In this document: positions 14,060 through 64,000 of the stretch, piece after piece
Numbering within the stretch: the first letter of the stretch is position 1
How the letters are laid out: every line of letters begins with the position of its first letter
Assembly: GCA_030789695.1 (NCBI GenBank)
Contig: CM061136.1
Span: 133,083,584 to 133,147,583, forward strand
Length of the DNA stretch: 64,000 bases
Direction of reading: 5' to 3'
Source of the DNA: Scilla litardierei
Taxonomy: Eukaryota > Streptophyta > Magnoliopsida > Asparagales > Asparagaceae
Translations under genes and position numbers: made by a program
The notes under the pieces: generated by a model
Database searches by the model: none
Seen by the model: the letters and a program-made list of their open reading frames with translations, nothing else
What the model was told of the DNA's origin: nothing

Positions 14060-16812
14060 TCAAGGTGGGCGATACGGGTGATGCCCAAAGTCTGGCATCG
14101 CTTCAGCTTCAGAGCTGGTAGCTTTTGGTGTAGTCGGTGGCGACAAGAAAACTTGTTCGACGACTCTCCCCTTGTTGACGGGGTCCTGGGGCTTCTCCCT
14201 CATATTGGCGTCCACCGCCACTCGTTTAAGGATCCGGACCTCATCCCCGGTGAGCCCCATGGGCTCTTTGCCTTTTCTCCTCATAGGAGGAGCCTTTGGG
14301 AATCCGGGAGGGATCGTGCGTGCCTCATCCATTATCCCAGCAACATCATTCGTTTTCAGGCCTACTGGTTCTTCTGAGTCCCCCAAGCTATCGGGGGGAT
14401 TTCTTGAAAGAATTTCCCAGGAGCTTTCCTCCACAGCTCTCTCTGTTTCAAACTCCATCACGTTGCATCTTGGATCATCCGGGGGGTCGGGGTGTTTCAT
14501 TGACAACCCCAAGTCAAATTTGACTTTCTCATTGCCGACGTTAAGGGAAAGCTTCCCATTCTTCACATCGATTAATACGCCAGTAGTGGCAATGAAAGGC
14601 CATCCAAGGATAATATGGGTGTGCTTATCTTCCGGCATGTCCATCACAATGAAGTCCACAGGCACATGCATCCCTCTAACATTGACGGGGAGATCATCTA
14701 CAACCCCCACCGGGTATTTAACCGAACGGTCTGCAAGCTGTAATGTCATGCCGGTGGGCTCCAAGTTGCCCATTCCTATCCTCTTATACAGTGACAAGGG
14801 CATCAAACTGACTCTCGCTCCAAGATCGACGAGCGCACGATGTATTTTTACCTCCCCGATCGCGCAAGGGATAGAGAAGCTCCCCAGGTCTTTAAGCTTA
14901 GGAGGGTTTGCTCGCTGGATAAGAGCACTACACTCTGCCGTCAGAACGACCTTCTCCTTTCTGGACCCCTTTGTCACCAAATCCTTGAGGAATTTTGCGT
15001 AAGAGGGTATCGTCTCTATAGCTTCAAGGAAGGGTATTTGCAGGCTTAGATCTTTGACCATGGCAAAGAATTTGCCATACTTCTTGTCTATTTGGGCCTG
15101 GGCTAACCGTTGCAGAAAAGGCACAACGGGCTTGAATACCCTGAGGTTCCCTTCCTCATCCTTTTTCTTCTCCTCTTCATGGATTTCCTCCGGAGTAGTT
15201 GGCTTTCACGACGAATCACCGGCGTCATTCAATTTTTCAATCGGTCGCTCCACGACCAATGGTGCTTCCGGTTCCTTTGGTGGCACTCTTGTGGGGATTT
15301 GTGTTCCGCTCCTCAAGACGATAGCGGACATGTTCGCATGGTCATGCGTGAGTGCCAAGGTCTGATTTTCTCCCCTCAGGTTCACCTCCGGTTGTGGCGG
15401 CAATAAGTTTTGCGACCTTGAAAGATTCGCCACTTGTAACCCCAGCTGGGTTACTTGGTCCGTGAGAGCCCGGTGTCCCATTTCCAGCTTCAAATTTATC
15501 TTCTCCTGGTTGGATATATATTGAGTCAAAAGGGACTCAACCGGAGAGACGGCCCTCTGTTGGCCATATTGCTGCTGTTGCTGAACTGGTTGCTGATTTC
15601 TGGGAGCATATTACTGATATTGTTGTGGAGGCTGCTGCTGCTGAAACTGCTGCTGCTGAGGCTTAGCCGGCTAATATATCTGTTGTTGCTGCTGCTGAGG
15701 CGTCGGATATACTAGCTGCTGCTGCTGCTGATACGGTGTCCTGTAGCTAAAGTTGGGGTGGTTCCGGTTGTTCGGAGAATAGGCCGGATTGGAGTTGGTT
15801 CGTGGTGGAGAAGGCGCATTCCCCGTAGGATTGTAAAATAAAGCGCTCGCCTGGTCCACCGGGGGTGAAATGTCACCTCCCTCGAAATCCCCCTGACTTT
15901 GGATTCCACCGCAACAATCTGTTGTGCTCCGGCGCCACCGGCGCCTACCATCAAAGCAGAGATCTGGGTTGACAGTAAGTCAAACTTGCTGAATAATCGG
16001 TTGACGTCCTCGACCCTATGGATTCCCCCAGATCTAGGTGTGGCTCTCTCGTCACACCACCGCTCATTGTTTGATGCCATATTTTCCAGAATCTGCCCGG
16101 CATCTTCTTCGCTTCGGGACATAAAGGACCCTCCAGCCGCGGCGTCCATGGAAGATTTCAAATCGTCCCTCAACCCATTATAGAACAGATTTATGATCTG
16201 CCACTTGGGGAGCTCATGGTGGGGACATCTTCTCTGCATTTCCTTATATCTCGTCCAAGCTTCATGCAAGGACTCATGGCTGGCCTGGGAGAAGGAGGAG
16301 ATCTCACTCCTCAGCTTCATGGTCTTCCCTGGAGGAAAGAACTTCGTCAGAAAAGCATTCGAAAGCTTCTCCCAGGTGTTGAATGTGTTTGGGTCCTTCC
16401 CCCTAAGCCACAGTTTGGCCTTATCTATCAAAGAGAAGGGGAATAGCTTCAAGCAGATCGCCTCAGTTGTGACACCGTTTATCCGGAAGGTGTCACATTT
16501 CTCCAAGGAGGAGTCCAAATGCTCGATGGGGCTCTCCATGGGTGCCCTTGAGAATTGATCCTGCTGGATCCACGTCACCAAAGACGGCTTAAGCGCAAAG
16601 CTTTGAGCCGTAATATCAGGAGGACGGATGGCGGAGGTGGACTCGATGGATGGCATCGAGTACTCCAGCAGGGACTTGTGAGGTGGGGTGTTCTCCCCCA
16701 TGGTTTCCGGCTCTTCTCTTCTTCGCTTCTCTGCGGCAAGACGCCTTAGGGTGGCGTTTATCTCAGGATCAACGGGAATCAAGTCGTCGAGACTTCTTGA
16801 ACTCATGCGCAT
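14060..16812 (-). pseudogene. Gag-protease of element D, broken
   Basis: Gag starts at the ATG at 16812 (or 16806), about 180 bp inside the PBS. The Athila-type gag core shows SLIDKAKLWLRG, FLTKFFPP and LHEAWTRYKEM. A frameshift near 15890 joins a glutamine-rich linker, then the aspartic protease (14060-15124) with VDLGARVSLMPLSLY and IILGWPFIATTG. The active-site loop reads DLGAR where the family normally has DLGAS. Three in-frame stops (about 15671, 15612 and 15206) can each be explained by C-to-T changes of CAG, CAA or CGA. The frame ends in a basic/proline tail at 14060 instead of continuing into RT. A second frame overlapping on the plus strand is a shadow. Confidence 0.85.
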
Positions 16813-16988
16813 TAAAAACAATAAACACCCGTGAAGCGAAAAGTGGGAAAGAAACAGATAAAATAAAAAATAAAAAAATAAGAAAATAAAATAGAAATGG
16901 AAAAAGAAGAATGCGAAAATTATCGCGAGGTAGAGATGTGAGCTAGACACAAGGGTTCATGAAATCCTAAAATAACAAGCACGTTGCC

Positions 16989-17006
16989 TCCCCGGCAACG
17001 GCGCCA
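16989..17006 (-). other. Primer-binding site (tRNA-Asp), element D
   Basis: Minus strand TGGCGCCGTTGCCGGGGA lies 7 bp beyond the 5' LTR. It is complementary to the 3' end of plant tRNA-Asp, the usual primer of Athila/Tat elements. Confidence 0.9.
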
Positions 17007-17013
17007 TAAAGCT

Positions 17014-18601
17014 TGACGTCCCCCGCGTTTTCACGCGCGACCGGCGCAATGTGTGTTTGGGGGCGTGAGATTTAAATATTTGTAACCGTAAGCGCACGGT
17101 GTTGTAGTGTGGCTTGGGGGACGAACTCAGGGAGGCGTGGTTGTGCTTGTGTCAAGAAGGATCGGATTCACCCTGTGGGCGAGCTAGCCCGAATCGGATG
17201 ATGGGTTGTCACGGAAAAAGGAATGCGAGGGATAAACAATATAAAGGGAAAAACCCAGGACTTCGGTTTCCACCCTATCGTGTGATTCTCGCCGATACAT
17301 CCGACGGGTAGGATATCGATCAGAATTATGGTCTAATGGTGAGACGTTGCCTCTAAGAGTGGTACCAGCGTCCCATGGGCCCGATATTCCGGTCGGTGCC
17401 CAGGATGATGCGCCGGACTTCCCGGGTTCGGTCAGTGGGCATTCCCATGTCCATTAACACTGACCGACTCCAGGAGCACTAAGCTCGCAACGATAACTCC
17501 CAACGTCTCGTCCTGCCGCTCACGCGCGCTAGGATTCGACGTCTACGCTAAGGGCATGAGCTACGGCTAGGGAGTCAACCGCCAAGTTTATTCCCCCTTG
17601 GCCCAACGATCAAAGGTGATCTTTTTCCCACCGATGACAATAAAACACCCCGCGTAACCTGTAGATTCCTAATCCATATCGATTTCCTAGTCCTATGGAT
17701 GCATCGGGGAGGACCCACGAAGGGGTTTCCACCAAAATCCCAGATTTGGGAACTACTCACATATATTTACTAAAAAGCGATCTAAACCAAAATCGACCGT
17801 TAAAAACATAATCAAGCGATTGAAAAGCAGTAGAGCTATGCTAATAACACTATATTAAAGTTTGGTAAAGATCGGAAAACTTACAAATATCTGAAAAATT
17901 ACAGTCGTCAAGAGAGAGAAAAACAGCAAACAATAGCCACTCTCCTTTCTGGAAAACCTAGGGGTCCTATATATAGAATATGATATCGCCCGATCGGTTG
18001 AAAAGTCAACCGATCAGGTGACCTGCTTTGTTTCTTCGACAGCTCAGCACGGGACTTCACCCAGTCACATAACACGGTCGGTTGAGAGTTGAAGCTGATC
18101 GGTTGGATCTTCATGCCGTCGGGTGAACCAGTCGGTTGAGCTCTTCGTGTCTTGACTTCGGAGAATCGGCTACAGTTGAACTGATCGGGTGAAGGTCACC
18201 CAATCGGTTGGCATTCAACATCAAATTCCAGAGAGTTGGGGCGTTTGAACCGGTCTCTGAACCGACCGGTTGACTTTCCGCCCGCTTCAGCTTGTGCCCG
18301 GGTGGTGCACGCGTGCATCACCCGATCGTTTGGAAGTGACCAACCGGTCAGGTGAGGGGCTGAAAGATGCTATCTTCGTCGTTTGACACCCTGGATCACG
18401 CGTGACTCCTCCCGTTACTCCGGGGACTCATGATATCATCGTTATATGTCCCCTACGCCAATAAACTCCTGTAAAATACAAAAAACACGGAAAAGTGGAA
18501 GAAAACAAGAAAACACGAGAAAACGAATACAAGACGGCAGAAAACAACGGAAAAACACAAAAGAAAACGTGCGTGAATATATGAAATATAAACGCACGTC
18601 A
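17014..18601 (-). mobile_element. Element D 5' LTR
   Basis: 1588 bp, TGACGT...ACGTCA. Near-identical to 8117-9706 with scattered substitutions. It contains the palindrome array 17988-18354, the TATA box CTATATATAG (17967-17976) and the CGGTCAGTG/CACTGACCG inverted repeat (17429-17437 with 17458-17466). Drives the minus-strand transcript. Confidence 0.9.
17988..18354 (-). promoter_or_regulatory. Palindrome array, D 5' LTR
   Basis: Same series of CACCCGATCGGTTG / CAACCGATCGG variants as 9092-9460, several decayed by single changes (for example CCGATCAGG, CAATCGGTTG). Immediately upstream of the LTR TATA box. Confidence 0.75.
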
Positions 18602-18724
18602 CTTAGGAGTGTCGCCCACGGCTCGTTCGAGGACTTATCAGCGATGGAGGATGATCGGAAGAAGAAGGAAATCAATAGGAGCGACGAGGAGGCGAGAAGA
18701 AGAAGAATGAGCTCAACAGCACAC

Positions 18725-19088
18725 CACTCGGCCGAGTAGACCACTCACTCGATCGAGCATGAAGCCCCACTCGGCCGAACAGAACGGATACGCACACGAA
18801 GTTTTTCAGCGTATACTCGGCCGAACAAAGGAAGCCCACTCGACCGAGTGAGAAAGTTCACTCGCCTGAGTGGTACAGGGAATTCGTCCAGAGAAAGGCC
18901 CAAGTTACTGGAATTTTCAGAGATCCTGAAGAGGCCCACTCGGCCAAGCATGAATGCTCACTCGGCCAAGTAAAGAAGTCCACTCGGCTGAGCCACCCCC
19001 CGAAGACAGACCCTGAAACCCCTGAAGTTACTATTTTTCTACAGGGTTTGTCACTCGGCCGAGTGACAAGGGTCACTCGGCCGAGTGA
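18725..19088 (+). promoter_or_regulatory. CACTCGGCCGAGTG palindrome array, C 5' LTR
   Basis: Eleven sites; the last two are perfect 14-bp palindromes and the others have one to three changes (CACTCGACCGAGTG, CACTCGGCCAAG and so on). The array ends about 85 bp before the TATA-like TATTTAAA, i.e. in the U3 promoter. Confidence 0.8.
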
Positions 19089-19545
19089 CCCTCTCCGCCT
19101 GCTGTTAGGGTTGAGATTTCTGGGCTGTGCAGTGGCAGTTTGGTCACGGTTTTCTGGACGATTTTAAAGGGTATTTAAACCCAGTTTTTGTCCTAGTTTA
19201 GGAGAGACTTGAACATTAATTTTTGGACTTTCTTTTAGGATTTTGGCGGCTACTCTTTTGTGAATTCTCAGCTGAAGATCGTTGGCATCAACATTGGTTT
19301 GTCTATTCTTATTAAAAACTCAATTTTTATGCATTATTTCTCTTTTGCAATGAATTGTGCCACGATTATTGTTATTATTTTTGAGATTTGCATGATGTCT
19401 AGTGAGTAGTGCCGTCGTCCTAGGGCATAAGGATGAACCCTATGGACCATATCTCTGAATTGTGATGAATTTGTTGATTTGTTGCTAGAATTGATTAGGG
19501 TTAGGTTGTGATTGATTGATTACGGGTAGCTAGGAATTCATATCG

Positions 19546-19842
19546 ATTGGGATTTGCAAGAGATTGGATCCCAATTGGTAGGAAGACCTAGATATTCGAT
19601 TTAGATTGACAATTGGATTTCTCTAGATTTGGTTTGCAAGAGATTGGACTAAAGCTAGGATTTTTAATTGTGAATCTATACCAATATTCGTTTGCAAGAG
19701 ATTGGACGAATAAGACCCATCATAACCTAGGCTGTAGCTCAAGTTTGCACGAGAGTGGGCTCGAGATACGATTGAACAATGATGTCGTTCTTCATGCTAG
19801 CGGCTTAGGCTAGGGTTTGCACGAGAGTGGGCCCTATCCTAG
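19546..19842 (+). other. Five-hairpin RNA array in C 5' LTR leader
   Basis: Five tandem stem-loops in the transcribed leader. Each has a different lower stem (ATTGGGAT/ATCCCAAT, TTTGGT/ACTAAA, TATTCGT/ACGAATA, a CTCAAG/CTCGAG type and TAGGGT/GCCCTA) but the same tip: CAA-GAGA-TTG or CAC-GAGA-GTG, a 3-bp helix capped by a GNRA tetraloop. A TTG/G internal loop separates tip and stem. Possible packaging, dimerisation or translation element. Confidence 0.7.
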
Positions 19843-20201
19843 GTTTGCTATAGACCGGCAATAGCGCGAGAGCGTGAGCTTGGTTCTACATTAAGTTGCA
19901 ACTAGTTCACCTATATTCAAGCCTAGCAACAATGAAATTTATGAATCACAAGGATGAGAGACGGTCCGTAGTGGGGATTTCCTATCCCTAGACGCTTTTT
20001 ATTATATTGATATTTTCTTGATACTTGAACGATTGAGACTATTACTCCCAACTATTCTTGTTCTCTTGATAGCTAGGTGATTTGAGTAAGACATGGTCAT
20101 TTGTCCTCCCTGAGTTCGATACCCACTCGCCGCTACACCGTGCGCTTGCGGTAAAACTACAAGTCGTTTTTCGGGTATACATCCGGACGCGATCAAGTTT
20201 T

Positions 20202-20219
20202 TGGCGCCGTTGCCGGGGA
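20202..20219 (+). other. Primer-binding site (tRNA-Asp), element C
   Basis: TGGCGCCGTTGCCGGGGA six bases after the LTR end, complementary to the tRNA-Asp 3' end. Confidence 0.92.
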
Positions 20220-20360
20220 GGATTTTTGACGGTGTTCTATTTGGATCACCCGGTTATATCTTACTTACTTACTTTCTTTCTTTATTTTTCCCTTTTTGAC
20301 TCTATTTGCTGCCCAATTTACGTGATCTCCCAGTATTTTCCATAAGATCTTAACAGGAAC

Positions 20361-23300
20361 ATGGGGGACGCAATGTTGATGACTGAGTCTAGCCCGGGAG
20401 ATGATGATTCCTTCGCAGTCCTTCTTAAGGAACTTGTTGATGAGGTCCATACCACAGGGGCATTTGCCGTTGATATCGAGGACCCCATTGAGCAACTGTT
20501 TGCTAGCTTTGTGATGGATCAAATCTCCCCGGAAGGGACTATTGAGGGCAACATCAGAGTTGATGTGAGGGACGGGAAGTTATATTTTGAAGATAGTAGA
20601 GCGTGCATCGATGAGTACTACACTCTCGAGGAGTCCACTGGGCATGCCGAGATTCAGGTAAGTACACTCTACGACCCTCGCTCTTACATTTATGAACCCA
20701 CTGACACATCTCTTGATTTCAGGTGTAGACCGGAGCAAGACGGTGGCCCCATCGATGCCCATGCGGAGTTGTGCAGTGTCTATTCCGACGCACCGTCCTC
20801 ACCAAGAAGTGAATCTGAGCTTGCAAGCGAGAGCCCACTCCCAGAGCAGGAACTAAACCCAGACGTTGCAGAAGAAGCCAAGCTTTCACAAGGAGAGGAG
20901 GTAGAGGGTACATCGCCCCCTGAGGTAGAGCTTAAACAATTACCACCAAATCTAAGGTACGCTTTCTTGGGTAATAAATTGACCTATCTGGTTATTGTTA
21001 ATGCCCACCTAAACCATGATCAACTTGAAAGACTCTTAGATGTCCTTAGAAGTCACAATGATGTCCTTGGCTACACCATCTCTGATCTTAAAGGAATAAG
21101 CCCTAGGCTTTGCACGCATAGAATCTACTTAGAAAACACTGAAGCCACCTCCATAGAGCCTCAAAGGTGGTTGAACCCTAACATGAAGGAGGTGGTTAAG
21201 AAAGAGATTCTCAAATTACTTGAAGCCGGCATTATCTATCCTATCTCTGACAGCAGGTGGGTTAGCCATGTTCATGTCGTCCCTAAAAAGGGGGGATGAC
21301 CGTTATAAAAAACGAAAAGGGAGAGCCCATCTCTACACGCACTGTCACGGGATGGCAGATGTGTATCGATTATAGGAAATTAAATAAAGCCACCCGGAAA
21401 GACCATTACCCATTACCCTTCATTGACCAAATGCTTGAGCGCCTCGCTAAACACAAATTCTTTTACTATCTGGATGGGTATTCAGGATTCTTTCAAATCC
21501 CCTTGCATGAAGATGACTAAGAAAAGAACACTTTCACATGTCCTTATGGTACATATGCCTATCGTAGGATGCCCTTTGGACTTTGCAATGTTCCCGCCAC
21601 TTTTCAAAGGTGCATGACATCCATCTTTTCTGATTATAGTGAAAATATTATGAAAGTCTTCATGGATGATTTTTCTGTGTATGGAAGTGAGATTGATTCT
21701 TGTTTGGCTAATCTTACTAAAGTCCTTAAACGATGCCAACAAAATAACCTCACTCTTAATTGGGAAAATTGTCATTTTATGGTCACCGAGGGGATAGTTC
21801 TTGGGCACCTTGTTTCTTCTAGAGGGATCGAGGTTGATAAGGCGAAAATTAAGGTAATCAAAAATCTCCATCCTCCTATTAATGTTAAGGGCATTAGAGG
21901 CTTTCTTGGTCATGCGGGGTTTTACCGCCGCTTTATCAAGGATTTTGCCTTAATTACCTGACCTCTTACTGCCTTACTTGCTAAAGATGCTCCCTTTGTC
22001 TTTTCAGGAGAGTGCTTGCAAGCATTTAATACGTTGAAGGAAGCTCTCATTTCTACTCCCATTATACAACCGCCAGACTGGAGCCTTCCCTTTGAGCTTA
22101 TGTGTGATGCAAGTGACCAAGCAATTGGAGCGGTGCTATGACAAAGGAAGGATAAGAAGCTTCATGCAATATTCTATGCAAGCAAAACATTGAACGAAGC
22201 GCAGAAAAATTACACCACTACCGAGAAGGAGCTTCTGGCGGTTGTCTATTCCATCGAGAAGTTTCGGTCCTACCTCCTCGGATCCAAAGTTATTGTCCAT
22301 ACCGACCATGCGGCATTGAAGTATCTTCTGAGCAAAAAAGAGGCAAAGCCAAGATTGATAAGATGGATACTTTGTTGCAAGAATTTGACTTGGAAATTAG
22401 AGACAAAAAGGGAACGGACAACGTTGTGGCAGACCACTTATCTAGGCTTGTTCGTGATAAGGAGGATGAAAGCTTACCAATCGATGACACCTTTGTCGAC
22501 GAGAGGCTATTCGTCATAAGACCCGGAGAGGTGCCTTGGTATGCGGATTTTGTTAATTATTTGTCTTGTGGGATAAAACCATGCGGGATGCCCACGTAAC
22601 AGAAAAGGAGATTTATGCACGAAGTCCGAAAATATTTCTGGGAAGATCCGTATCACTTCAAGATATGCAAGAACGGTGTCATACGGAGGTGTATTCCCAA
22701 GGAGGAAGCCACGTCAATCATTTTGCATCGCCATAGTATGCCATGCGGGGGACATCATGCTGCCTCTAAAACCACCGCTAAGATATTACAATGCGGATTC
22801 TTCTGGCCAACCATGTTCAAGGATACGCATGACTTCGTCAAGAGTTGCGATAGATGCCAACAGACCGAAAATATATCCAAACGAAATGAGATGCCAATGA
22901 AGCCCATTCTAGAAATTGAGCTATTTGATTGTTGGGTAGTGGACTTCATGGGACCTTTGCAATCGAGGAAAGGTAACAAGTATATCTCATTAGCCATGGA
23001 CTACGTCTCCAAATGGTTAGAAGCCATTGCAACCCCTACCAATGATGCGAGGGTGGTATCAAAATTTTTCAAGCAAAACATCTTCCCACGCTTTGGAGTG
23101 CCTCGTACTTTGATAAGCGATGGGGGGAGCCATTTCATAGAAAAAAAATTTGAAGCCATGTTGAAAAAGTACGGGGTGAATCATAGAATTGGCATGGCAT
23201 ACCACCCTCAGACGAGTGGATAAGTGGAGGTGTCGAACCGGGAAATCAAGCAAATTCTAGAAAAAACCGTTGATAGATCAATAAAGGATTGGTCTGTAAA

Positions 23301-29316: not shown

Positions 29317-29620
29317 TGATCACTCCATATTTTACACCTTTTTTCTGCATGTTTGCATGTCGTTTTGATCGATCATATCGCGTTTTTCACGATTATTCGA
29401 CAATATTGCGATGCTTTTCACTATTTCTTGTTTTTGTCGTATTTCAGGAAATATGGAGCGATCTGGAGTGAATTTGATATCAAAGGATTTGTACGTTCTT
29501 AGGAGTGTCGCCCACGGCTCGTTCGAGAACTTATCAGCGATGGAGGATGAGCGAAAGAAGAAGGAAATCAATAGGAGCGACGAGGAGGCAAGAAGAAGAA
29601 GAATGAGCTCAACAGCACAC

Positions 29621-29984
29621 CACTCGGCCGAGTAGACCACTCACTCGACAGATCACGAAGCCCCACTCGGCCGAACAGAATGGATACGCACACGAAGTTT
29701 TTCAGCGTATACTCGGCCGAACAAAGGAAGCCCACTCGACCGAGTGAGAAAGTTCACTCGCCCGAGTGGTACATGGAATTGTCCAGAGAAAGGCCCAAGT
29801 TACTGGAATTTTCAGAGATCCTGAGGAGGCCCACTCGGCCGAGCATGAATGCTCACTTGGCCGAGTAAAGAAGTCCACTCGGCCGAGCCACCCCCCGAAG
29901 ACAGACCCTGAAACCCCCGAAGTTACTGTTTTTCTACAGGGTTTGTCACTCGGCCGAGTGACAAGGGTCACTCGGCCGAGTGAC
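29621..29984 (+). promoter_or_regulatory. Palindrome array, C 3' LTR
   Basis: Eleven CACTCGGCCGAGTG-type sites at the same positions as in the left LTR. Several are better preserved here (CACTCGGCCGAGC where the left copy has CAAGC or CTGAGC). Confidence 0.8.
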
Positions 29985-30440
29985 CCTCTCCGCCTGCTGT
30001 TAGGGTTGCGATTTCTGGGCTGTGCAGGGGCAGTTTGGTCACAATTTTTCAGACGATTTTAAATGGTGTTTAAACCCAGTTTTTGCCCTAGTTTAGGAGA
30101 GACTTGAACAGTAATTTTTAGACTTTCTTTTAGGATTTTGGCGGCTACTCTTTTATGAATTCTCAGCTGAAGATCATTGGCATCAACATTGGTTTGTTTA
30201 TTCTTGTTAAAAACTCAATTTTAATGCATTATTTCTCTTTTGCAATGAATTGTACCGCGATTATTGTTATTATTTCTGAGATTTGCATGATGTCTAGTGA
30301 GTAGTGCCATCGTCCTAGGGCATATGGATGAACCCTATGGACCCTATCTCTGAATTGTGATGAATTTGTTGATTTATTGCTAGAATTGATTAGGGTTAGG
30401 TTGTGATTGATTGATTACGGGTAGCTAGGAATTCATATCG

Positions 30441-30738
30441 ATTGGGATTTGCAAGAGATTAGATACCAATTGGTAGGAAGGCCTAGATATTCGATTTATA
30501 TTGACAATTGGATTTCTCTAGATTTGGTTTGCAAGAGATTGGACCAAAGCTAGGATTTTTAATTGTGAATCTATACCAATATTCGTTTGCAAGAGATTGG
30601 ACGAATAAGACACATCATAAACCTAGGTTGTAGCTCGAGTTTACACGAGAGTGGGCTCGAGATACGATTGAACAATGATGTCGTTCTTCACGCTAGCGGC
30701 TTAGGCTAGAGTTTGCACGAGAGTGGGCCCTATCCTAG
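30441..30738 (+). other. Five-hairpin RNA array in C 3' LTR
   Basis: Same five stem-loops as 19546-19842. Stem 2 here is fully paired (TTTGGT/ACCAAA) where the left LTR has a G-U pair, and stem 4 pairs CTCGAG with CTCGAG. The first stem is damaged by AGATACC. Confidence 0.65.
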
Positions 30739-31095
30739 GTTTGCTATAGACCGACAATAGCACGAGAGCATGAGCTTGGTTCTACATTAAGTTGCGACTA
30801 GTTCACCTATATTCAAGCCTAGCAACAATGAAATTTGTGAATCACAAGGATGAGAGACGGTCCGTAGTGGGGATTTCCTATCCCTAGACGCTTTTTATTA
30901 TATTGATATTTTCTTGATACTTGAACGATTGAGACTATTACTCCCAACTATTCTTGTTCTCTTGATAGCTAGGTGATTTGAGTAAGACACGGTCATTTGT
31001 CCACCCTGAGTTTGATACCTATTCGTCGCTACACCGTGCACTTGCGGTAAAACTACAAGTCGTTTTCGGGTATACATCCGGACGCGATCATTCTC

Positions 31096-52313: not shown

Positions 52314-52612
52314 CCTAGGTTCGGGTCCAATCTCTTGCAAACCCTACCCTAGGCAAGCTAGCATTAGGATCAACATCATCGTTCAATCGCGCCCCGACCC
52401 CACTTTCGTGCAAACTCGGGCCACGACCTAGGTTGGGATAGTTCCTACCCGTCCAATCTCTTGCAAACGGGTATCGGCACGGAATTGCAACCGGAAACCC
52501 TAGTATCGGTCCAATCTCTTGCAAACCGATACTACGGAAATTCGATTCCAACCCAATTCGGATTTCTAGGGTTTCCTATCGAATTGGGATCCAATCTCTT
52601 GCAAATCCCAAT
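52314..52612 (-). other. Five-hairpin RNA array in E 3' LTR
   Basis: Same design as in C. Stems in E read ATTGGGAT/ATCCCAAT, AGTATCGGT/ACCGATACT, TACCCGT/ACGGGTA, CCCGA/TCGGG, and GGGT/ACCC extended by CCTAGG/CCTAGG. Tips are CAA-GAGA-TTG, or CAC-GAAA-GTG in the fourth. Stem bases differ from C in pairs. Confidence 0.7.
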
Positions 52613-53093
52613 CGATATGAATACCTAGCCATCCGTAGTAAATCGATCCCAATCTAACCCTAATAGCAATTCTAGCAAAATTTCTACCAATTCATCACAA
52701 ATCTGAAATTGGGCTCGTAGGGTTCATCCCCACGCCCCAAGACGTGGAGACTACTCACAATTCATAGTACAAACACAAAAATAATCAATGAAATTAACAA
52801 GAGAATTCATCACAATATTGAGATAAGCAATAAATATAGTATTTTTAGAGGAGAGAGACACAAACCAATGGAGTTCTTCAAATAATCCAACAAAAATCAA
52901 CTTTTGTCTCCTCTCCAATCACAAGAATAAAGCTAAAAAGTTAATCTAAAAAGCTGCAAAAATCTAAGAGAAAAGCTCTCTAACCTAGGGTAAAAACAGG
53001 GGTTAAATACCCTCCAAAATCGTCCAAAAAACTGTGACCAAAATGCCCCTGCGCAGCCTGAAATCCGCAATTTTCGCTACAGGCAGCGCGTCG

Positions 53094-53477
53094 CACTCGG
53101 CCGAGTGACAAAAGTCGCTCGGCCGAGTGAGAAACCCTGTAAATTTCCAGTAAGTCTGGGTCTTCGGGGGTCTTCACTTCGGGAGTCGCTCGGCCGAGTG
53201 AGTTGTCGTCACTCGGCCGATGGCTTCTTAGTACTCGGGCGGTCGGCATTTGCCACTCGGCCGAGTGGGTCTTCTGAAGCTCAGGCAGACGAAAAACAGT
53301 AAGTTGGCGATTTTTGATGGGCTTCGTCTGAGTGCCACTCGGGCGGACGGGATCTCATCACTCGGCCGATGTGGCTTCCGTCGCTCGGCCGAGTGCACAT
53401 ATAAATCGTGTCCGATCCGGTCGGCCGAGCGGTGTCTCGCTGGTCGGCCGAGTGACTCCTTCACTCGGCCGAGTGGG
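53094..53477 (-). promoter_or_regulatory. Palindrome array, E 3' LTR
   Basis: About a dozen CACTCGGCCGAGTG-type sites (several GCTCGGCCGAGTG), upstream of the TATTTAAC box on the minus strand. Confidence 0.78.
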
Positions 53478-53771
53478 ACACCAAAAATGCCCAAACAGCT
53501 TGTTTTGGCCTCCTCGTCGCTCCTGTGACGTTCTTTCTTCCTCCGCTCCTCTCCAATGGCAAAATATCCCTCGGGGAGGTCATCGGTGACACTCTGGAGT
53601 AGGGGTATCTCGAGATCACTCCAAATCGCTCCAAATCACCTGAAATTCGACAAAAACAAGAAATCGTGAAAAGCATCGCAATATCGTCGATATATCGTGA
53701 AAATCATGATTTGAGCGATCTAAATGGCATGCAAACATGCGGGAAAAAAAGTGTAAAATAATGAGTGATCA

Positions 53772-59014: not shown

Positions 59015-61789
59015 CTATGATTTCCAATTAATGCGGGATGTTTGGTGCATATGGGATGCACCCGTCAAACTTTCCGGGGAGAACGCTTGGATTCGGAAGT
59101 TGCGGCGGCGTGTTCTCCCTTGGTGGTCTCTCGTCTCGAATAGTGTTGGGGGTGGCTCCCCCAAGCTAGCGTTTGCTCCAGTCCTCGGTTTCACCGGTGA
59201 CGCCGATTTCTGTATCAGTGGAGCTTTCTTCGGAGACTTCAATTTCGAGAGCTTGCAGAGCTCTCGAATCCTTGCGACATCAGCGTCGCCTTCATCAATT
59301 TCAGCGGAGAAGTCGGTGGAATCATTTTTCTTCTCATCTTGGCCTAAATCTGGGCCTTCCTCGAAATCCTCTTTAAATAGGGCGCCGATCGAATGGGGGA
59401 TCGCCTCCTCAATCACCTCGTCAAGGAGGTCCATGTAGTCAAGCTCCTCGTGGTAAGGCATGTGTTTCATTGCCTTAGGAATATGAAGCTCCACCTCGAT
59501 GTTGCCGACGTTCAATGTTAGGGTACCTTCTCGCACGTCGACAATGACACCGGCGGTGGCGAGGAACGGGCGTCCAAGTATCAATGACGTATCTCCCTCC
59601 TCCTTAACGTCCATGATCACGAAGTCACATGGCAAACATATGCCCCCCGGGACATGTAGCGGGATGTCCTCTACGATCCCTACCGGCCTTGTGATCCATC
59701 CATCGGCTAGTTGTATACGCATGTCGGTGGGCTTCAATTTCGTCCCGGTGTTTAGCCTTAGGAACATGGAGAGAGGCATGAGGCTTACACTAGCCCCTAA
59801 ATCCACCAACGCCTTTTGTAGAGGGACGCCGCCCAAGGTGCAAGGAATTCGAAAACTCCCCGGGTCTTTGAATTTGGCCGGCTCCTTCTCTCTCTTGGTG
59901 AACCAAGAGCCCTCCTCGACGAGCATAATTTTCTCCTTCCTCTTTCTCCCCGAAATCAAATCCTTTAAAAATTTTGTGTATGTCGGGATCTCAACAATAG
60001 CATCAAGGAAGGGAATATTGAGACTTACCCCTCTCAAATATTCGAGAAACTTCGCTAGTCGCTTCTCCATCTTCGCTCTAGCAAGCCTCTGAGGGAATGG
60101 TACCGGTGGCATGAAGCGCCTCTCTTCAAGCAATTGCTCCGCTCTAGATTTCTCCTTTTCTTGCGGCTCTTTCTCCCTCTCAACTTCAACTACCGGCCCA
60201 ATTGGCTCTACACTTTCCTCCACGGGCTCCTCGGTAGGAATCATGGTGGGGGTGGTATCCTTCCCGCCTCTAGTAGTAACGGCAACCACGGCATTGATGT
60301 GGCCGGTGGCACCCCGAGGGTTTTGCTCGGGTTGAGCCGGCAATTGTTGAGTATTCCGATTGAGCAACGCCAATTGCTCCGAGATTTGTGCCACAACGGT
60401 TGTAAGGGAGTATTGGCCCGCCTTCAAGGAAGCATTGACCTTCTTTTGCTCGACCATAAACTCCTCCACTCTAGCTTCAAAGTCGGATCGTTGTTGAGCT
60501 TGTGGGGGGTTTTGATTTCTCCACCCTTGATTGTATCCGGGCGGCCTATAGGGTGGAACTTGTTGCTTCGGTTGGAAATTTTGTTGTGGAGGCCCCCTCG
60601 GTGGATAGTATTGTGGTGGTGGTGGTGGTCGAACTTGTTGAGGTGGTTGTTGCGGCGGGTTCAAAGCTCCTTCATTGTTTGCATATGAGAAATCGGGATG
60701 GTTTCTAGTGGCCGGATTGGCCCAATACCCTTGGTTCCCCGCGACATATTGGACTTGATCCAAGGATCCCTCTCCTTGCTCTCCTCCCAAATACATAGCT
60801 TGAGATTGGTCTTGCCAATCACACATTTGATTCGTCGGTGCGGAGGTGGAAGGGGTTCCTTGGGGCTCCGTGATAAACTTCTCCAGTCTCTCCACCACCT
60901 TGTGGAGAGAATCAAACTTGCTTGTAAGCTCCACTACGGCCTTCGCCTCATAGATGCTAGTTGGCTTCAAGGAGGACGTAGAGTGTCCTCGCTCGTCACC
61001 CCATTGTTGATTGTTTGAGGCCATCTCCTCAATTAGGGCCGTAGCTTCTTCGGGAGTCTTTGATAAGATAGCACCATTTGCCGCAGCATCAATAATTTGC
61101 TTGGTCCCCGGTTGGAGACCATTGTAGAAGCTATGAACTAGCTCCCAATCTTCAATGCTATGGTGCGGGCATTGATGCTGCAGATCTTTGAAACGCTCCC
61201 AAGCCTCATAGAGCGTCTCTTGGGGTCCTTGCTTGAAGGACATAAGAGCGCTCCGAATCTTTACCGTTTTGGAGGGCGGATAGAACTTGTCAATGAATGC
61301 ACTCGCCAATTCGTCCCATGTGGTAAAGACTCCCTTAGCTTGCGTCCTCAACCAATAAAGTGCCTTGTCCTTTAGTGTGAAGGGGAAGAGGCGCAGTCTG
61401 ATGGCATCGATGGAGACCCCCGTCATCTGAAATGTGGCGCACTTCGACAAGAATAGCTGGATGTGGTAGTGGGGATTTTCATGGGCGTTCCCATGAAATG
61501 GATCCTGCTGCATCATAACCACTAGTCCAGTCTTCAGCTCAAAGTTCTTGTCAGCCGCCAACTCCGGCATGGCAATGGAAGAGGTCGTAGAAGAGGTCTT
61601 AGGCCGAAGCCTATCTCGAATAGAAATAATCCTCGCCATTCTTGCCGCTAATTGTTCCGCAGTTTCCGGGTTGGTCATAAACCTCCCTTCCGGATCTTGT
61701 CTTCTCTCCGCCCTGATTCTCCATGCAGTACGCTCAATCTCGGGATCAAATAATATAGCTTCAGTGTCTGCCGTTGATCTCGTGTTCAT
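59015..61789 (-). CDS. Gag-protease polyprotein of element E with integrase-type C-terminal tail
   Basis: A single open frame of 924 codons, the only long intact one in the window. The ATG is 120 bp inside the PBS. The gag core lies at residues ~70-270 (TGVSIDAIRLRLFPF, KALYWLRT, FIDKFYPPSKT, LYEAWERFKDL), then a proline/glutamine-rich linker with no zinc knuckle, as usual for Athila. An aspartic protease follows with DLGAS (Asp663) and SLILGRPFLATAG. Residues ~787-924 are a tail with [31 protein letters not shown] and SASPVK, which matches the C-terminus of the integrase in element C, not an RT. So RT, RNase H and integrase appear excised in frame. The role would be capsid formation and self-processing. 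Confidence 0.9.
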   Translation of the reverse strand: MNTRSTADTEAILFDPEIERTAWRIRAERRQDPEGRFMTNPETAEQLAARMARIISIRDRLRPKTSSTTSSIAMPELAADKNFELKTGLVVMMQQDPFHGNAHENPHYHIQLFLSKCATFQMTGVSIDAIRLRLFPFTLKDKALYWLRTQAKGVFTTWDELASAFIDKFYPPSKTVKIRSALMSFKQGPQETLYEAWERFKDLQHQCPHHSIEDWELVHSFYNGLQPGTKQIIDAAANGAILSKTPEEATALIEEMASNNQQWGDERGHSTSSLKPTSIYEAKAVVELTSKFDSLHKVVERLEKFITEPQGTPSTSAPTNQMCDWQDQSQAMYLGGEQGEGSLDQVQYVAGNQGYWANPATRNHPDFSYANNEGALNPPQQPPQQVRPPPPPQYYPPRGPPQQNFQPKQQVPPYRPPGYNQGWRNQNPPQAQQRSDFEARVEEFMVEQKKVNASLKAGQYSLTTVVAQISEQLALLNRNTQQLPAQPEQNPRGATGHINAVVAVTTRGGKDTTPTMIPTEEPVEESVEPIGPVVEVEREKEPQEKEKSRAEQLLEERRFMPPVPFPQRLARAKMEKRLAKFLEYLRGVSLNIPFLDAIVEIPTYTKFLKDLISGRKRKEKIMLVEEGSWFTKREKEPAKFKDPGSFRIPCTLGGVPLQKALVDLGASVSLMPLSMFLRLNTGTKLKPTDMRIQLADGWITRPVGIVEDIPLHVPGGICLPCDFVIMDVKEEGDTSLILGRPFLATAGVIVDVREGTLTLNVGNIEVELHIPKAMKHMPYHEELDYMDLLDEVIEEAIPHSIGALFKEDFEEGPDLGQDEKKNDSTDFSAEIDEGDADVARIRELCKLSKLKSPKKAPLIQKSASPVKPRTGANASLGEPPPTLFETRDHQGRTRRRNFRIQAFSPESLTGASHMHQTSRINWKS

Positions 61790-61932: not shown

Positions 61933-62713
61933 TGATCGCTCCGGAATGTAACCCAAAAGTGCGACCGTGTAGTTTTACCGCAAGCACACGGTGTAGCAGC
62001 GAGCGGGTTATCGAACACAGGGAGGACGAATGAAAGTGCTTGCTCCAATCAACCTGGCTATTTAAGAACAGAAAAGAGAGAATTTGCCTTTGGCGATCCT
62101 GTCACAATCGTCAGACAAAGTACGAAGATATCAAATCAAATAAAGAACGTCTAGGGAATGGGGAATCCCCGCTACTCACCGTATTTCGTCAATGCGGTTC
62201 ATTGGTATCAAAATTGCTAGAATAAAATTTTGGATGAACTAGTTGCAACTGAATGTAAAACCTAGCTCACGCTCTCGCGCTATTGTCGGTCTATAGCTAT
62301 CCTAGGTTCGGGTCCAATCTCTTGCAAACCCTACCCTAGGCAAGCTAGCATTAGGATCAACATCATCGTTCAATCGCGCCCCGAGCCCACTCTCGTGCAA
62401 ACTCGGGCCACGACCTAGGTTGGGATAGTTCCTACCCGTCCAATCTCTTGCAAACGGGTATCGGCACGGAATTGCAACCGGAAACCCTAGTATCGGTCCA
62501 ATCTCTTGCAAACCGATACTACGGAAATTCGATTCCAACCCAATTCGGATTTCTAGGGTTTCCTATCGAATTGGGATCCAATCTCTTGCAAATCCCAATC
62601 GATATGAATACCTAGCCATCCGTAGTAAATCGATCACAATCTAACCCTAATAGCAATTCTAGCAAAATTTCTACCAATTCATCACAAATCTGAAATTGGG
62701 CTCGTAGGGTTCA
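61933..62713 (-). mobile_element. Element E 5' LTR, cut by F
   Basis: First 781 bp (plus-strand order) of the LTR, aligned with 51946-52727 with about ten differences. Contains the hairpin array at 62301-62599. The palindrome array and U3 lie beyond element F, outside the window. Confidence 0.9.
62301..62599 (-). other. Five-hairpin RNA array in E 5' LTR
   Basis: As at 52314-52612. The fourth hairpin here has the tip CAC-GAGA-GTG and stem CCCGAG/CTCGGG, where the other LTR has CAC-GAAA-GTG. Confidence 0.7.
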
Positions 62714-63319
62714 TGTTGGATCCTGCCAAAACAGAGTTAGGATCGATAAATGAAGTTGAGACTTACGCTTGCGTATGCGGCACGGTAGTCTACGAACTTC
62801 GCCTTCGGATTCGCCACGACGGATCGAGTCTTCTCACGAACGGAGTAAGGCTACTAAATCCACAATCTAAATCTCTACTTTTAGATTAAGAACTTGGATA
62901 AAGAGAGAGGAAGGATTTCGGCAGAGCTTCGCTAGAATGAAATGCATGCAAGAATGCCATGCAAAAGTGTAAGTAAAATGGCTAACCCTTGGGTCTTATT
63001 TATAGCCCCCAAGGTAGTTATTTTAGGAGTAATTGTTCCTTTGGAACAATTTAACTAAGGTGTACCATCGTACATGGCATATTATAAGCTTAAGTTGTAC
63101 CATATGCATGGTACAACATAAGCTTAAGATATTACCCCTTTATTAGCCATATGTCGCATACACTTATGCACATATAATGCGACTTTCCCATCAATCTAGA
63201 GAGCCTCTCCGTAAGGGAACATATTCCCTTTACACACGACTTCGTGTACACGACGTTCGAGGTCCGTATTCCCTCGTACATCCCCTACAAGGGTGTACTA
63301 TCGTCTTCCATATCCAACA
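62714..63319 (-). mobile_element. Element F 3' LTR
   Basis: 606 bp with eight-base inverted ends TGTTGGAT/ATCCAACA, flanked on the left by E's LTR sequence ...GTTCA. Confidence 0.7.
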
Positions 63320-64000
63320 TCTCCCACTCACACTTGAGGGGATTTGTAAGAGAACGTCTTTCTCTTAGTTCTTTCATCTATTATACCGAGAAATAGACCG
63401 TGCGACCGTCATGCGCGTAGAGTCTGTTGTTGTGCACTTGTTAGAGATACACAACGACCTCGAAGGTGCAAAGTTGAGTAGTTCAACGCATGCTTTACCC
63501 TAGATTATTTCTTCACATTTCTTATACTTTATATTCAACAATTGAATCCCATCTGGATCACAATTGGCTGGCCAGCTTTGAATCATTAAAGTCCAAATGT
63601 GAATATGAAATCAATCTTCCTCTTCTTGCGAACCTTCTGATCTTGACTTGATTCGCTTTTCTAACGTGCCCCGCCGAGCCGAATTATCATAGCCCATTAG
63701 TAACACGCTAAGATAGCGATCATCTCGTCAAATCTAAAGGAACCAATTGGAGTCCTTGAGGGTAAGAGTTAAGGCCCATATGGCCTTTGAGTCTCACATA
63801 ATAGGAAACACTATTGCAACTAACTCAGTGGTCGAAATGCATACGTGGTATGAACACGTATTACAACATCGCTCCTTTCCCAGGGAGTGTATGTCTCAAT
63901 GATGTTGTAAGGATGATGATCAGACACCACAATGTCTGACTTTGAGTCCCTTATTCTACTTAAATAATCCTTTGGACTCACATCATGCATTTAGACAGAT
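62714..64000 (-). mobile_element. Element F: Ty1/copia retrotransposon, 3' part
   Basis: A 606-bp LTR (62714-63319) with TGTTGGAT...ATCCAACA ends sits inside E's LTR. On the minus strand it has a TATAAATAAG box (about 62998-63007). The adjoining sequence gives AAGTGTGAGTGGGAGA (63335-63320) as PPT on the minus strand, so this is the 3' LTR and the element runs off the window. The 680 bp of internal sequence seen show no recognisable protein and may be the untranslated 3' end. Confidence 0.7.

What the first reader, a model, noticed from the sequence alone, without database searches (positions are those of the whole stretch)
19546..19842. Five tandem GNRA-capped hairpins with co-varying stems in the LTR leader
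Seen: each hairpin tip is CAA-GAGA-TTG, CAC-GAGA-GTG or CAC-GAAA-GTG, so the tip helix co-varies and every loop fits GNRA. Lower stems change in pairs between C and E: TATTCGT/ACGAATA against TACCCGT/ACGGGTA, TTTGGT/ACCAAA against TATCGGT/ACCGATA, CTCGAG/CTCGAG against CCCGAG/CTCGGG. This is strong comparative support for RNA structure. Position, between TATA and PBS, suits packaging, dimerisation or ribosome entry.
Basis: partly seen in the sequence, partly recalled or inferred. Interest (0 to 1): 0.9.

Follow-up and report, generated by a model that had tools for sequence, protein, structure and literature searches.

The report
Five-hairpin RNA array in plant retrotransposon
The long terminal repeats of a plant jumping gene carry a row of five RNA hairpins with nearly the same tip on different but matching stems, present in very many copies in the genome, which looks like a docking array that helps the element handle its own RNA.

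Summary
The array lies in the LTR of an Athila-type Ty3 element (E1), 347 nt after the inferred transcription start and before the primer-binding site. All four LTR copies of E1 and a relative, E2, carry it. The 3.68-Gb genome holds 199,005 exact cores, against 4 for the reversed pattern. All 25 arrays formed by the first 100 listed places have five hairpins at nearly fixed spacing. Between E1 and E2 the cores differ at 2 of 70 positions (one compensated pair), stems at 23 of 112, yet pairing survives. On 67 arrays 95.0% of cells pair; a tree-aware null gives 82.6 ± 1.5%, reached in 0 of 500 simulations. So an RNA structure is kept by selection. That it decays after insertion is indicated but not significant in the 29 arrays not chosen by tip. 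No Rfam family matches; nine paper searches listed no description. My best mechanism, inferred only, is a five-fold protein-binding site for RNA packaging. Against it: GAGA loops serve as stand-ins in retroviral work, and E2's Gag shows no zinc knuckle. Transcription and function are untested.

The parts
18602..20195 (+). 5' LTR of element E1, 95.7% identical to 29498-31090 (3' LTR)
   Evidence: self-BLAST; exact LTR edges not determined
19169..19182 (+). TATA-like promoter motif GGGTATTTAAACCC; E2's 3' LTR has a near copy
   Evidence: transcription start about 19199 is inferred
19541..19580 (+). hairpin A, 13-bp stem, tip CAA-GAGA-TTG
19624..19657 (+). hairpin B, 10 pair positions (one A.G mismatch in E1), tip CAA-GAGA-TTG
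19685..19712 (+). hairpin C, 7-bp stem, two doubly compensated pairs against E2
19730..19773 (+). hairpin D, 14 pair positions around one mismatch (two of the 14 broken in this LTR), tip CAC-GAGA-GTG
19804..19843 (+). hairpin E, 12 pair positions around one mismatch; third tip pair C-G in E1, A-U in E2
19846..19886 (+). conserved sixth element with tip CGC-GAGA-GCG but without the UUG/G bulge; weak structural support
20202..20219 (+). primer-binding site TGGCGCCGTTGCCGGGGA
   Evidence: that it is typical of Athila/Tat elements is recalled
30440..30735 (+). the same five hairpins in the 3' LTR of E1
52318..52613 (-). the five hairpins in the 3' LTR of E2
62305..62600 (-). the five hairpins in the 5' LTR of E2
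60404..61789 (-). Gag part of E2 (Retrotrans_gag), first 462 residues of the open frame; no CCHC zinc-knuckle pattern

Best explanation
The array is a conserved RNA structure in the 5' leader of an Athila-lineage retrotransposon (RNA structure about 0.93 likely). Each hairpin shows the same face: a U-A or U.G closing pair, a UUG/G bulge, three pairs C-A-M/K-U-G, and a GAGA tetraloop, on a stem that drifts in sequence but keeps pairing. Five copies 53-80 nt apart make a five-fold docking site. Most likely one protein (Gag, or a host protein that Gag uses) binds several hairpins together and so marks the unspliced genomic RNA for particle assembly. Shown: anatomy, copy number, covariation. Indicated: selection while elements were active. 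Inferred: transcription through the array, sense-strand action, protein binding, packaging. The confidence given is for the packaging step.
For: Cores nearly frozen while stems drift with pairing kept: 2 of 70 against 23 of 112 changes. Tree-aware test on 67 arrays: 95.0% paired against 82.6 ± 1.5%, 175 both-side cells against 36 ± 17, 0 of 500 simulations for either. Fixed E1/E2 pair changes keep pairing in 12 of 14; changes private to one LTR in 1 of 7. Place: first core 384 nt after the TATA motif in E1, 408 nt in the 2 of 7 long loci where the motif was found; PBS 385-432 nt after the last core in the 9 of 25 loci where an exact PBS was found. A gag-less head (85 exact 29-mers) is shared by E1 and by 3 of 3 fetched copies out of the 85, which still bear the array, as expected of a signal that acts in cis on Gag supplied in trans; BARE2, which makes no Gag yet is packaged into BARE1 particles, is the parallel (PMC3735527, abstract and passages).
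Against: A GAGA tetraloop was used to replace the HIV-1 dimer loop in structural work, and putting GAGA into RSV SL-C reduced infectivity (PMC7599994, passages), so GAGA is not an obvious NC-binding loop. E2 Gag lacks the zinc-knuckle pattern that 69 of 120 listed relatives show. Elements with the same PBS do without the array: E0 in the window and contaminant contig L049 show no repeated hairpin tip. The contrast between internal and terminal branches is not significant in the 29 arrays not chosen by tip. No transcript, binding or packaging data.
Confidence: 0.4

Rival explanations
1. Export or fate element: the repeated bulged hairpins recruit a host export or splicing factor, so that unspliced RNA leaves the nucleus, as repeated elements do in simple retroviruses (recalled).
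For: A repeated identical bulge on variable stems suits a host adaptor. The elements carry an ATHILA ORF downstream of integrase in E1 and of gag in E2, which might need a spliced message (inference).
Against: No splicing evidence; no Rfam match.
Confidence: 0.17
2. Translation control: the array lets ribosomes pass, enter or pause in a long leader.
For: 14 upstream ATGs precede the ORF at 20361 in E1; none starts between 19466 and 19778, where hairpins A to D lie.
Against: Gag-less copies keep the array, although they may translate another ORF. Five separate small hairpins do not resemble a known ribosome entry site (recalled).
Confidence: 0.15
3. RNA-RNA architecture: GNRA loops dock into helices and compact or pair genomic RNAs.
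For: GNRA loops often make tertiary contacts (recalled); spacing 80, 57-58, 53 and 71-73 in 24 of 25 arrays, one with 45 in third place.
Against: No receptor was identified (none was searched for systematically); TTGCAA is palindromic only in CAA hairpins, not in CAC hairpins; GAGA is not self-complementary.
Confidence: 0.13
4. DNA-level function: inverted repeats as protein sites or cruciforms.
For: Stems are inverted repeats in DNA too. In arms without closing pair and tip, G.U-making against A.C-making changes on internal branches are 11 to 5 (67 arrays) and 9 to 4 (29 arrays), not significant.
Against: A U.G closing pair in hairpin D in 29 of 29 arrays; G.U cells 27 against A.C cells 4 in the four window LTRs; 45 to 23 on terminal branches (p = 0.01, 67 arrays) but 11 to 8 with 29; place downstream of the promoter motif.
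Confidence: 0.06
5. Artefact of relatedness: the matching changes are a few old coincidences copied many times.
For: Only 2 of 53 pairs pass E < 0.05 one by one, none of 60 with 29 arrays. In one search the number of both-side pairs (7) was reached in 129 of 500 shuffles and the number of pair types in 474 of 500.
Against: The pooled tests that keep the tree reject it (0 of 1000; 0 of 500), and slid structures pair only 16-47%.
Confidence: 0.03

Closest known systems
Retroviral packaging signals (MoMuLV SL-B/C/D, HIV-1 Psi)
   Same: Several hairpins in the 5' leader before gag; tetraloop hairpins; MoMuLV NC binds tightly only when three stem-loops are together (PMC7599994, passages).
   Different: Five near-identical tips; GAGA loops, which retroviral studies used as replacements; an E2 Gag without zinc-knuckle pattern; no binding data.
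Ty3 and Ty1 genomic RNA structure (SHAPE)
   Same: Well-structured 5' end holding cis-acting signals (PMC11381356, passages).
   Different: Dimerisation there is by short palindromes; the passages seen describe no repeated hairpin array.
Sirevirus repeated palindromic motifs
   Same: Repeated dyad-symmetric motif in a plant LTR (PMC2829016, passages).
   Different: Those lie upstream of the TATA box, mostly with a CGG-CCG core, and are linked there to promoter activation; these lie downstream and covary.
BARE retrotransposon packaging
   Same: A gag-less partner keeps its dimerisation and packaging signals (PMC3735527, passages).
   Different: Ty1/copia; the passages seen do not describe such an array.
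Plant contaminant contig L050 (filed under Blastococcus endophyticus)
   Same: Same PBS; leader has five repeated hairpins with one apical motif, UCC-ACUU-GGA.
   Different: Different loop; a 232-bp duplication leaves three independent hairpins at most; R1 finds no match there better than E = 4.

Membership tests
Athila lineage of Ty3/gypsy | ATHILA ORF-1 domain (PF03078), a marker reported in 16% of Athila elements (PMC6317226, passages) | tested here: met
   E1 E = 4.5e-10, E2 E = 9.1e-9, both over the curated cut-off
Athila lineage of Ty3/gypsy | gag, protease, reverse transcriptase and integrase in Ty3 order | tested here: inconclusive
   E2 has gag and a protease domain just over one cut-off; E1 has integrase but no gag by tblastn. 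No reverse transcriptase domain or tree was tested.
GNRA tetraloop hairpin | G-N-R-A loop closed by a pair | tested here: met
   GAGA in all five hairpins of E1's 5' LTR; third tip pair A-U 113, C-G 29, U.G 2, A.C 1 of 145 units; a larger-loop alternative is not excluded
Retroviral-type packaging signal | lies in the 5' leader of unspliced genomic RNA | tested here: inconclusive
   right place between TATA motif and PBS; transcription not tested
Retroviral-type packaging signal | bound by Gag or NC, usually through zinc knuckles | tested here: inconclusive
   E2 Gag shows no CCHC pattern; binding itself cannot be tested here
Retroviral-type packaging signal | needed for RNA incorporation into particles | not testable with these tools
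   needs an experiment
Dimer initiation site | self-complementary loop | tested here: not met
   GAGA loops; TTGCAA only in CAA-type hairpins
Sirevirus repeated motif | upstream of TATA, CGG-CCG core | tested here: not met
   array starts 347 nt after the inferred start, core differs
Any Rfam 15 family | match at the gathering score | tested here: not met
   no hit on the array at gathering; at E up to 5 two hits in 19150-20300, neither on the array

The most novel reading that the evidence does not exclude
Plant Ty3 elements of the Athila/Tat group carry modular leader arrays: many copies of one family-specific hairpin tip (UUG/G bulge plus GAGA here, ACUU in L050) on freely drifting stems. 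They act as a multivalent barcode by which each family picks its own RNA, and gag-less relatives keep the barcode to ride on the particles of others.
Probability: 0.2. Interest if true: 0.85.

Novelty: new variant of a known kind. Interest (0 to 1): 0.62.

Why it matters
How plant Ty3 elements choose their own RNA is, to my knowledge, hardly known. A compact repeated hairpin with strong pooled comparative support gives a definite RNA to test for Gag or host-protein binding. It could also help explain how gag-less families spread. It could serve as a sequence tag for this lineage in a genome with about 199,000 exact cores.

Tried and rejected
Looked for the array outside this genome: motif-pair pattern in viral contigs and genome contigs and PBS in viral contigs: 0 stretches each; integrase in viral contigs: 7 stretches, none a relative. 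PBS in genome contigs: 2 plant-like contigs in bacterial records; R1 finds nothing convincing there (best E 1.1). No collection of plant genomes was on hand, so absence elsewhere is untested. Rfam: no family. G-C tips: the four examined of nine (L086, L093, L106, L108) lie in unrelated sequence, not arrays. The snoR71 hit at 61155-61261 overlaps E2 gag on the other strand and barely passes its cut-off (41.6 against 40; gag coordinates); taken as chance. Strand test on arms alone: not significant on internal branches. Per-pair covariation on 29 arrays: 0 of 60 significant. Internal against terminal branches: significant with 67 arrays, not with 29. A larger-loop tip scores almost as well, and 3 of 10 hairpins folded singly, all CAC type, take that form. 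Papers: nine searches, of which I saw the listings, gave no description of this array; one search was for comparison. Passages only were seen of PMC2829016, PMC3735527, PMC11381356, PMC5819184, PMC6317226, PMC7599994 and PMC11963269.

Full report
WHAT IS THERE. The finding lies in the 5' LTR (about 18602-20195) of element E1, whose 3' LTR is 29498-31090 (95.7% identical). A related element E2 lies on the minus strand (LTR copies 62714-61932 and 52727-51945 in the self-match, 98.7%). Both carry an ATHILA ORF-1 domain. E1 has an integrase; E2 has Retrotrans_gag and an aspartyl protease domain just over its cut-off. E1 has no gag that tblastn can see: E2 Gag and three relatives find gag only in E2 and at 15.9-16.8 kb.

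THE HAIRPINS. Each unit is stem, UUG bulge, C-A-M, GAGA, K-U-G, G, stem. Twenty units occur in the four LTR copies of E1 and E2; R1, built from them, gives 37.3-48.4 bits for these 20 and at most 12.2 bits elsewhere in the window, with filters off. Contiguous arms in E1's 5' LTR are 13, 6, 7, 3 and 6 bp, in E2's 5' LTR 9, 10, 7, 7 and 4; arms of 6 or more occur at 0.4% of window positions in this geometry. Allowing a mismatch or bulge, the stems have 13, 10, 7, 14 and 12 pair positions. E1's 3' LTR has arms of 2 in hairpins A and E, and E2's 3' LTR an arm of 1 in D, each through a single change.

COMPARISON E1 WITH E2. In 71 pairs of the 5' LTRs, 54 are the same, 7 change on both sides and still pair, 6 change on one side and still pair, and 4 fail to pair in one element. 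Cores differ at 2 of 70 positions, stems at 23 of 112, the rest at 51 of 203. If stem changes are dealt out at random among stem positions with the same base, 1.6 both-side kept pairs and 10.8 broken pairs are expected; observed 6 and 4 (p = 0.00075 and 0.00015). The structure was drawn on these sequences, which favours it. With a fixed 7-bp geometry 47 of 50 and 48 of 50 pairs form. Sliding the partners by 1-3 columns drops pairing from 96.5% to 16-47%. Two shuffle controls did not exceed chance: pairs with a both-side change (7 against 5.8; 129 of 500) and further pair types (13 against 15.7; 474 of 500); the other three did (0 of 500). On the 20 units (14 distinct) 88.7% of cells pair against 66.2% shuffled, and both-side cells are 43 against 12.8.

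FIXED AGAINST PRIVATE CHANGES. Changes fixed between the elements keep pairing in 12 of 14 pairs. Changes private to one LTR, which I take to have arisen mostly after insertion, keep it in 1 of 7 (Fisher p = 0.003).

GENOME SCALE. The genome tool placed the window in a 3.68-Gb assembly (C7:133083584-133147583) and counted 199,005 exact TTTGCAMGAGAKTGG, against 4 for the reversed pattern. Of the 100 places listed, all on the plus strand of C1 up to 1.5 Mb, 81 have A..T and 19 C..G at the third tip pair and none is mixed, where independence would give about 31 (my count). Other combinations are rare: W..S 3,066 (of 100 listed 81 U.G, 10 A.G, 9 A.C), S..W 901 (a mix of G.U, C.U and C.A among the 100 listed), K..M 57 (27 U-A, 12 G.A, 9 U.C, 9 G-C). 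The 100 places form 25 arrays; all 25 have all five cores at up to 3 mismatches, with spacing 80, 57-58, 53 and 71-73 (one array has 45 in third place). They were found through at least one exact core, so cores are favoured; stems were not selected on.

TREE-AWARE TESTS. With 29 arrays (the 25 and the four window LTRs; some are two LTRs of one element), 96.0% of cells in 53 pairs form, against 84.8 ± 1.6% when each branch's changes are re-dealt among columns of the same class and base; both-side cells are 88 against 10.4 ± 7.1 (0 of 1000 for both). A per-pair G test on these 29 finds 0 of 60 significant: too few deep splits. I then took 60 loci found through rare tip variants (L051-L110): 42 had four or more hairpins, 4 of these repeated arrays already held, 38 were added, 18 were dropped. 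These were chosen on tip changes, which weakens tips. With 67 arrays: 95.0% against 82.6 ± 1.5% (highest simulation 86.8%) and 175 against 36 ± 17 (highest 101), 0 of 500; two of 53 pairs pass singly, in hairpins C (E = 0.013) and B (E = 0.049).

INTERNAL AGAINST TERMINAL BRANCHES. With 67 arrays internal branches keep 51 and break 10 pairs, terminal branches 82 and 73 (p = 2e-5); part of this comes from choosing loci by broken tips. With arms only it is 25 and 8 against 52 and 52 (p = 0.015). In the 29 arrays not chosen by tip the trend is the same but not significant: 20 and 8 against 22 and 20 (p = 0.14), arms only 13 and 8 against 15 and 16 (p = 0.40). So decay after insertion is likely but not firmly shown.

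STRAND. G.U cells exceed A.C cells (27 to 4 in the window LTRs; 99 to 22 in 145 units, or 53 to 22 without the closing pair), and hairpin D closes with U.G in 29 of 29. Counted as changes in arms alone, internal branches give 11 to 5 (67 arrays) and 9 to 4 (29), not significant. Sense-strand RNA is favoured, not proved.

PLACE. The array begins 347 nt after the inferred start; the first core is 384 nt after the TATA motif in E1 and 408 nt in the 2 of 7 long loci where the motif was found (18 others were too short to reach it); PBS lies 385-432 nt after the last core in the 9 of 25 loci where an exact PBS was found. The leader has 14 ATGs before the ORF at 20361, none starting between 19466 and 19778.

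GAG-LESS RELATIVES. The 29-mer at E1's gag-less head occurs 85 times exactly. Three copies fetched of the 85 align with E1 from the array to about window 21215 at 88-92% identity, L112 in two pieces with an insertion near the LTR end; an exact PBS core is present in 1 of the 3. L111 and L113 carry five cores; L112 carries four, its stretch beginning after the first. That 21215 lies at the start of the reverse transcriptase region is recalled from Athila proteins; Pfam named no domain in that ORF. So a gag-less family seems to have multiplied with its array kept.

CONTRAST. Element E0 (LTR 17014-18601, minus strand, gag 41% identical to E2's) has the same PBS, no R1 match better than 11.3 bits and no repeated hairpin tip beyond chance. 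Contaminant contig L049 has none. L050, whose leader ends in the same PBS and whose ORF has Retrotrans_gag, has UCC-ACUU-GGA five times (200 shuffles never exceed 2), in part by a 232-bp duplication.

HOW IT PROBABLY WORKS. A frozen tip on drifting stems, repeated at near-fixed spacing, is what a protein that reads the tip and binds several times would select. Packaging fits the place, the number of copies per RNA and the retention in gag-less relatives. Against it stand the use of GAGA loops as replacements in retroviral studies and a Gag without zinc-knuckle pattern. I therefore put packaging at 0.4 and name export, translation and RNA architecture as live rivals.

ORGANISM. Not named by the tools. 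Of 1,955 Gag relatives, the 120 listed are plant entries wherever an organism is named. I guessed Silene latifolia from the contig numbers and looked at PMC5819184 (passages); its genome sizes do not settle it and nothing rests on the guess.

Noticed in passing
L050:4852-5310 (minus strand): Plant retrotransposon contig filed under Blastococcus endophyticus; its leader has five repeated UCC-ACUU-GGA hairpins before the same PBS, three of them independent at most.
   Followed up: partly
L049 and L050: Plant-like LTR retrotransposon DNA inside two bacterial genome records (Streptomyces clavifer BMWJ01000030.1 and Blastococcus endophyticus NZ_JABGCI010000027.1), apparently contamination.
   Followed up: partly
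window 20195-21300: E1 has no gag by tblastn, and the ORF after its PBS shows no Pfam domain; an exact 29-mer of this head occurs 85 times in the genome, so a gag-less family seems to have multiplied.
   Followed up: partly
window 60404-60910 (minus strand): Gag of E2 lacks the CCHC zinc-knuckle pattern that 69 of 120 listed plant relatives show.
   Followed up: partly
window 62715-63320 (minus strand): The 5' LTR of E2 is cut at 62714 by what looks like the 3' LTR of another element (TGTTGGAT...ATCCAACA) with its own TATA-like box.
   Followed up: no
window 15973-18601 (minus strand): A third element (E0) with related gag and the same PBS but no GAGA array.
   Followed up: partly
window 18710-19100 and 53100-53480: Many copies of CACTCGGCCGAGTG-like palindromes upstream of the TATA motif in the E1 and E2 LTRs, a separate repeated element.
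   Followed up: no
window 61155-61261: Rfam snoR71 match just over its cut-off, on the strand opposite to E2 gag; probably chance.
   Followed up: partly
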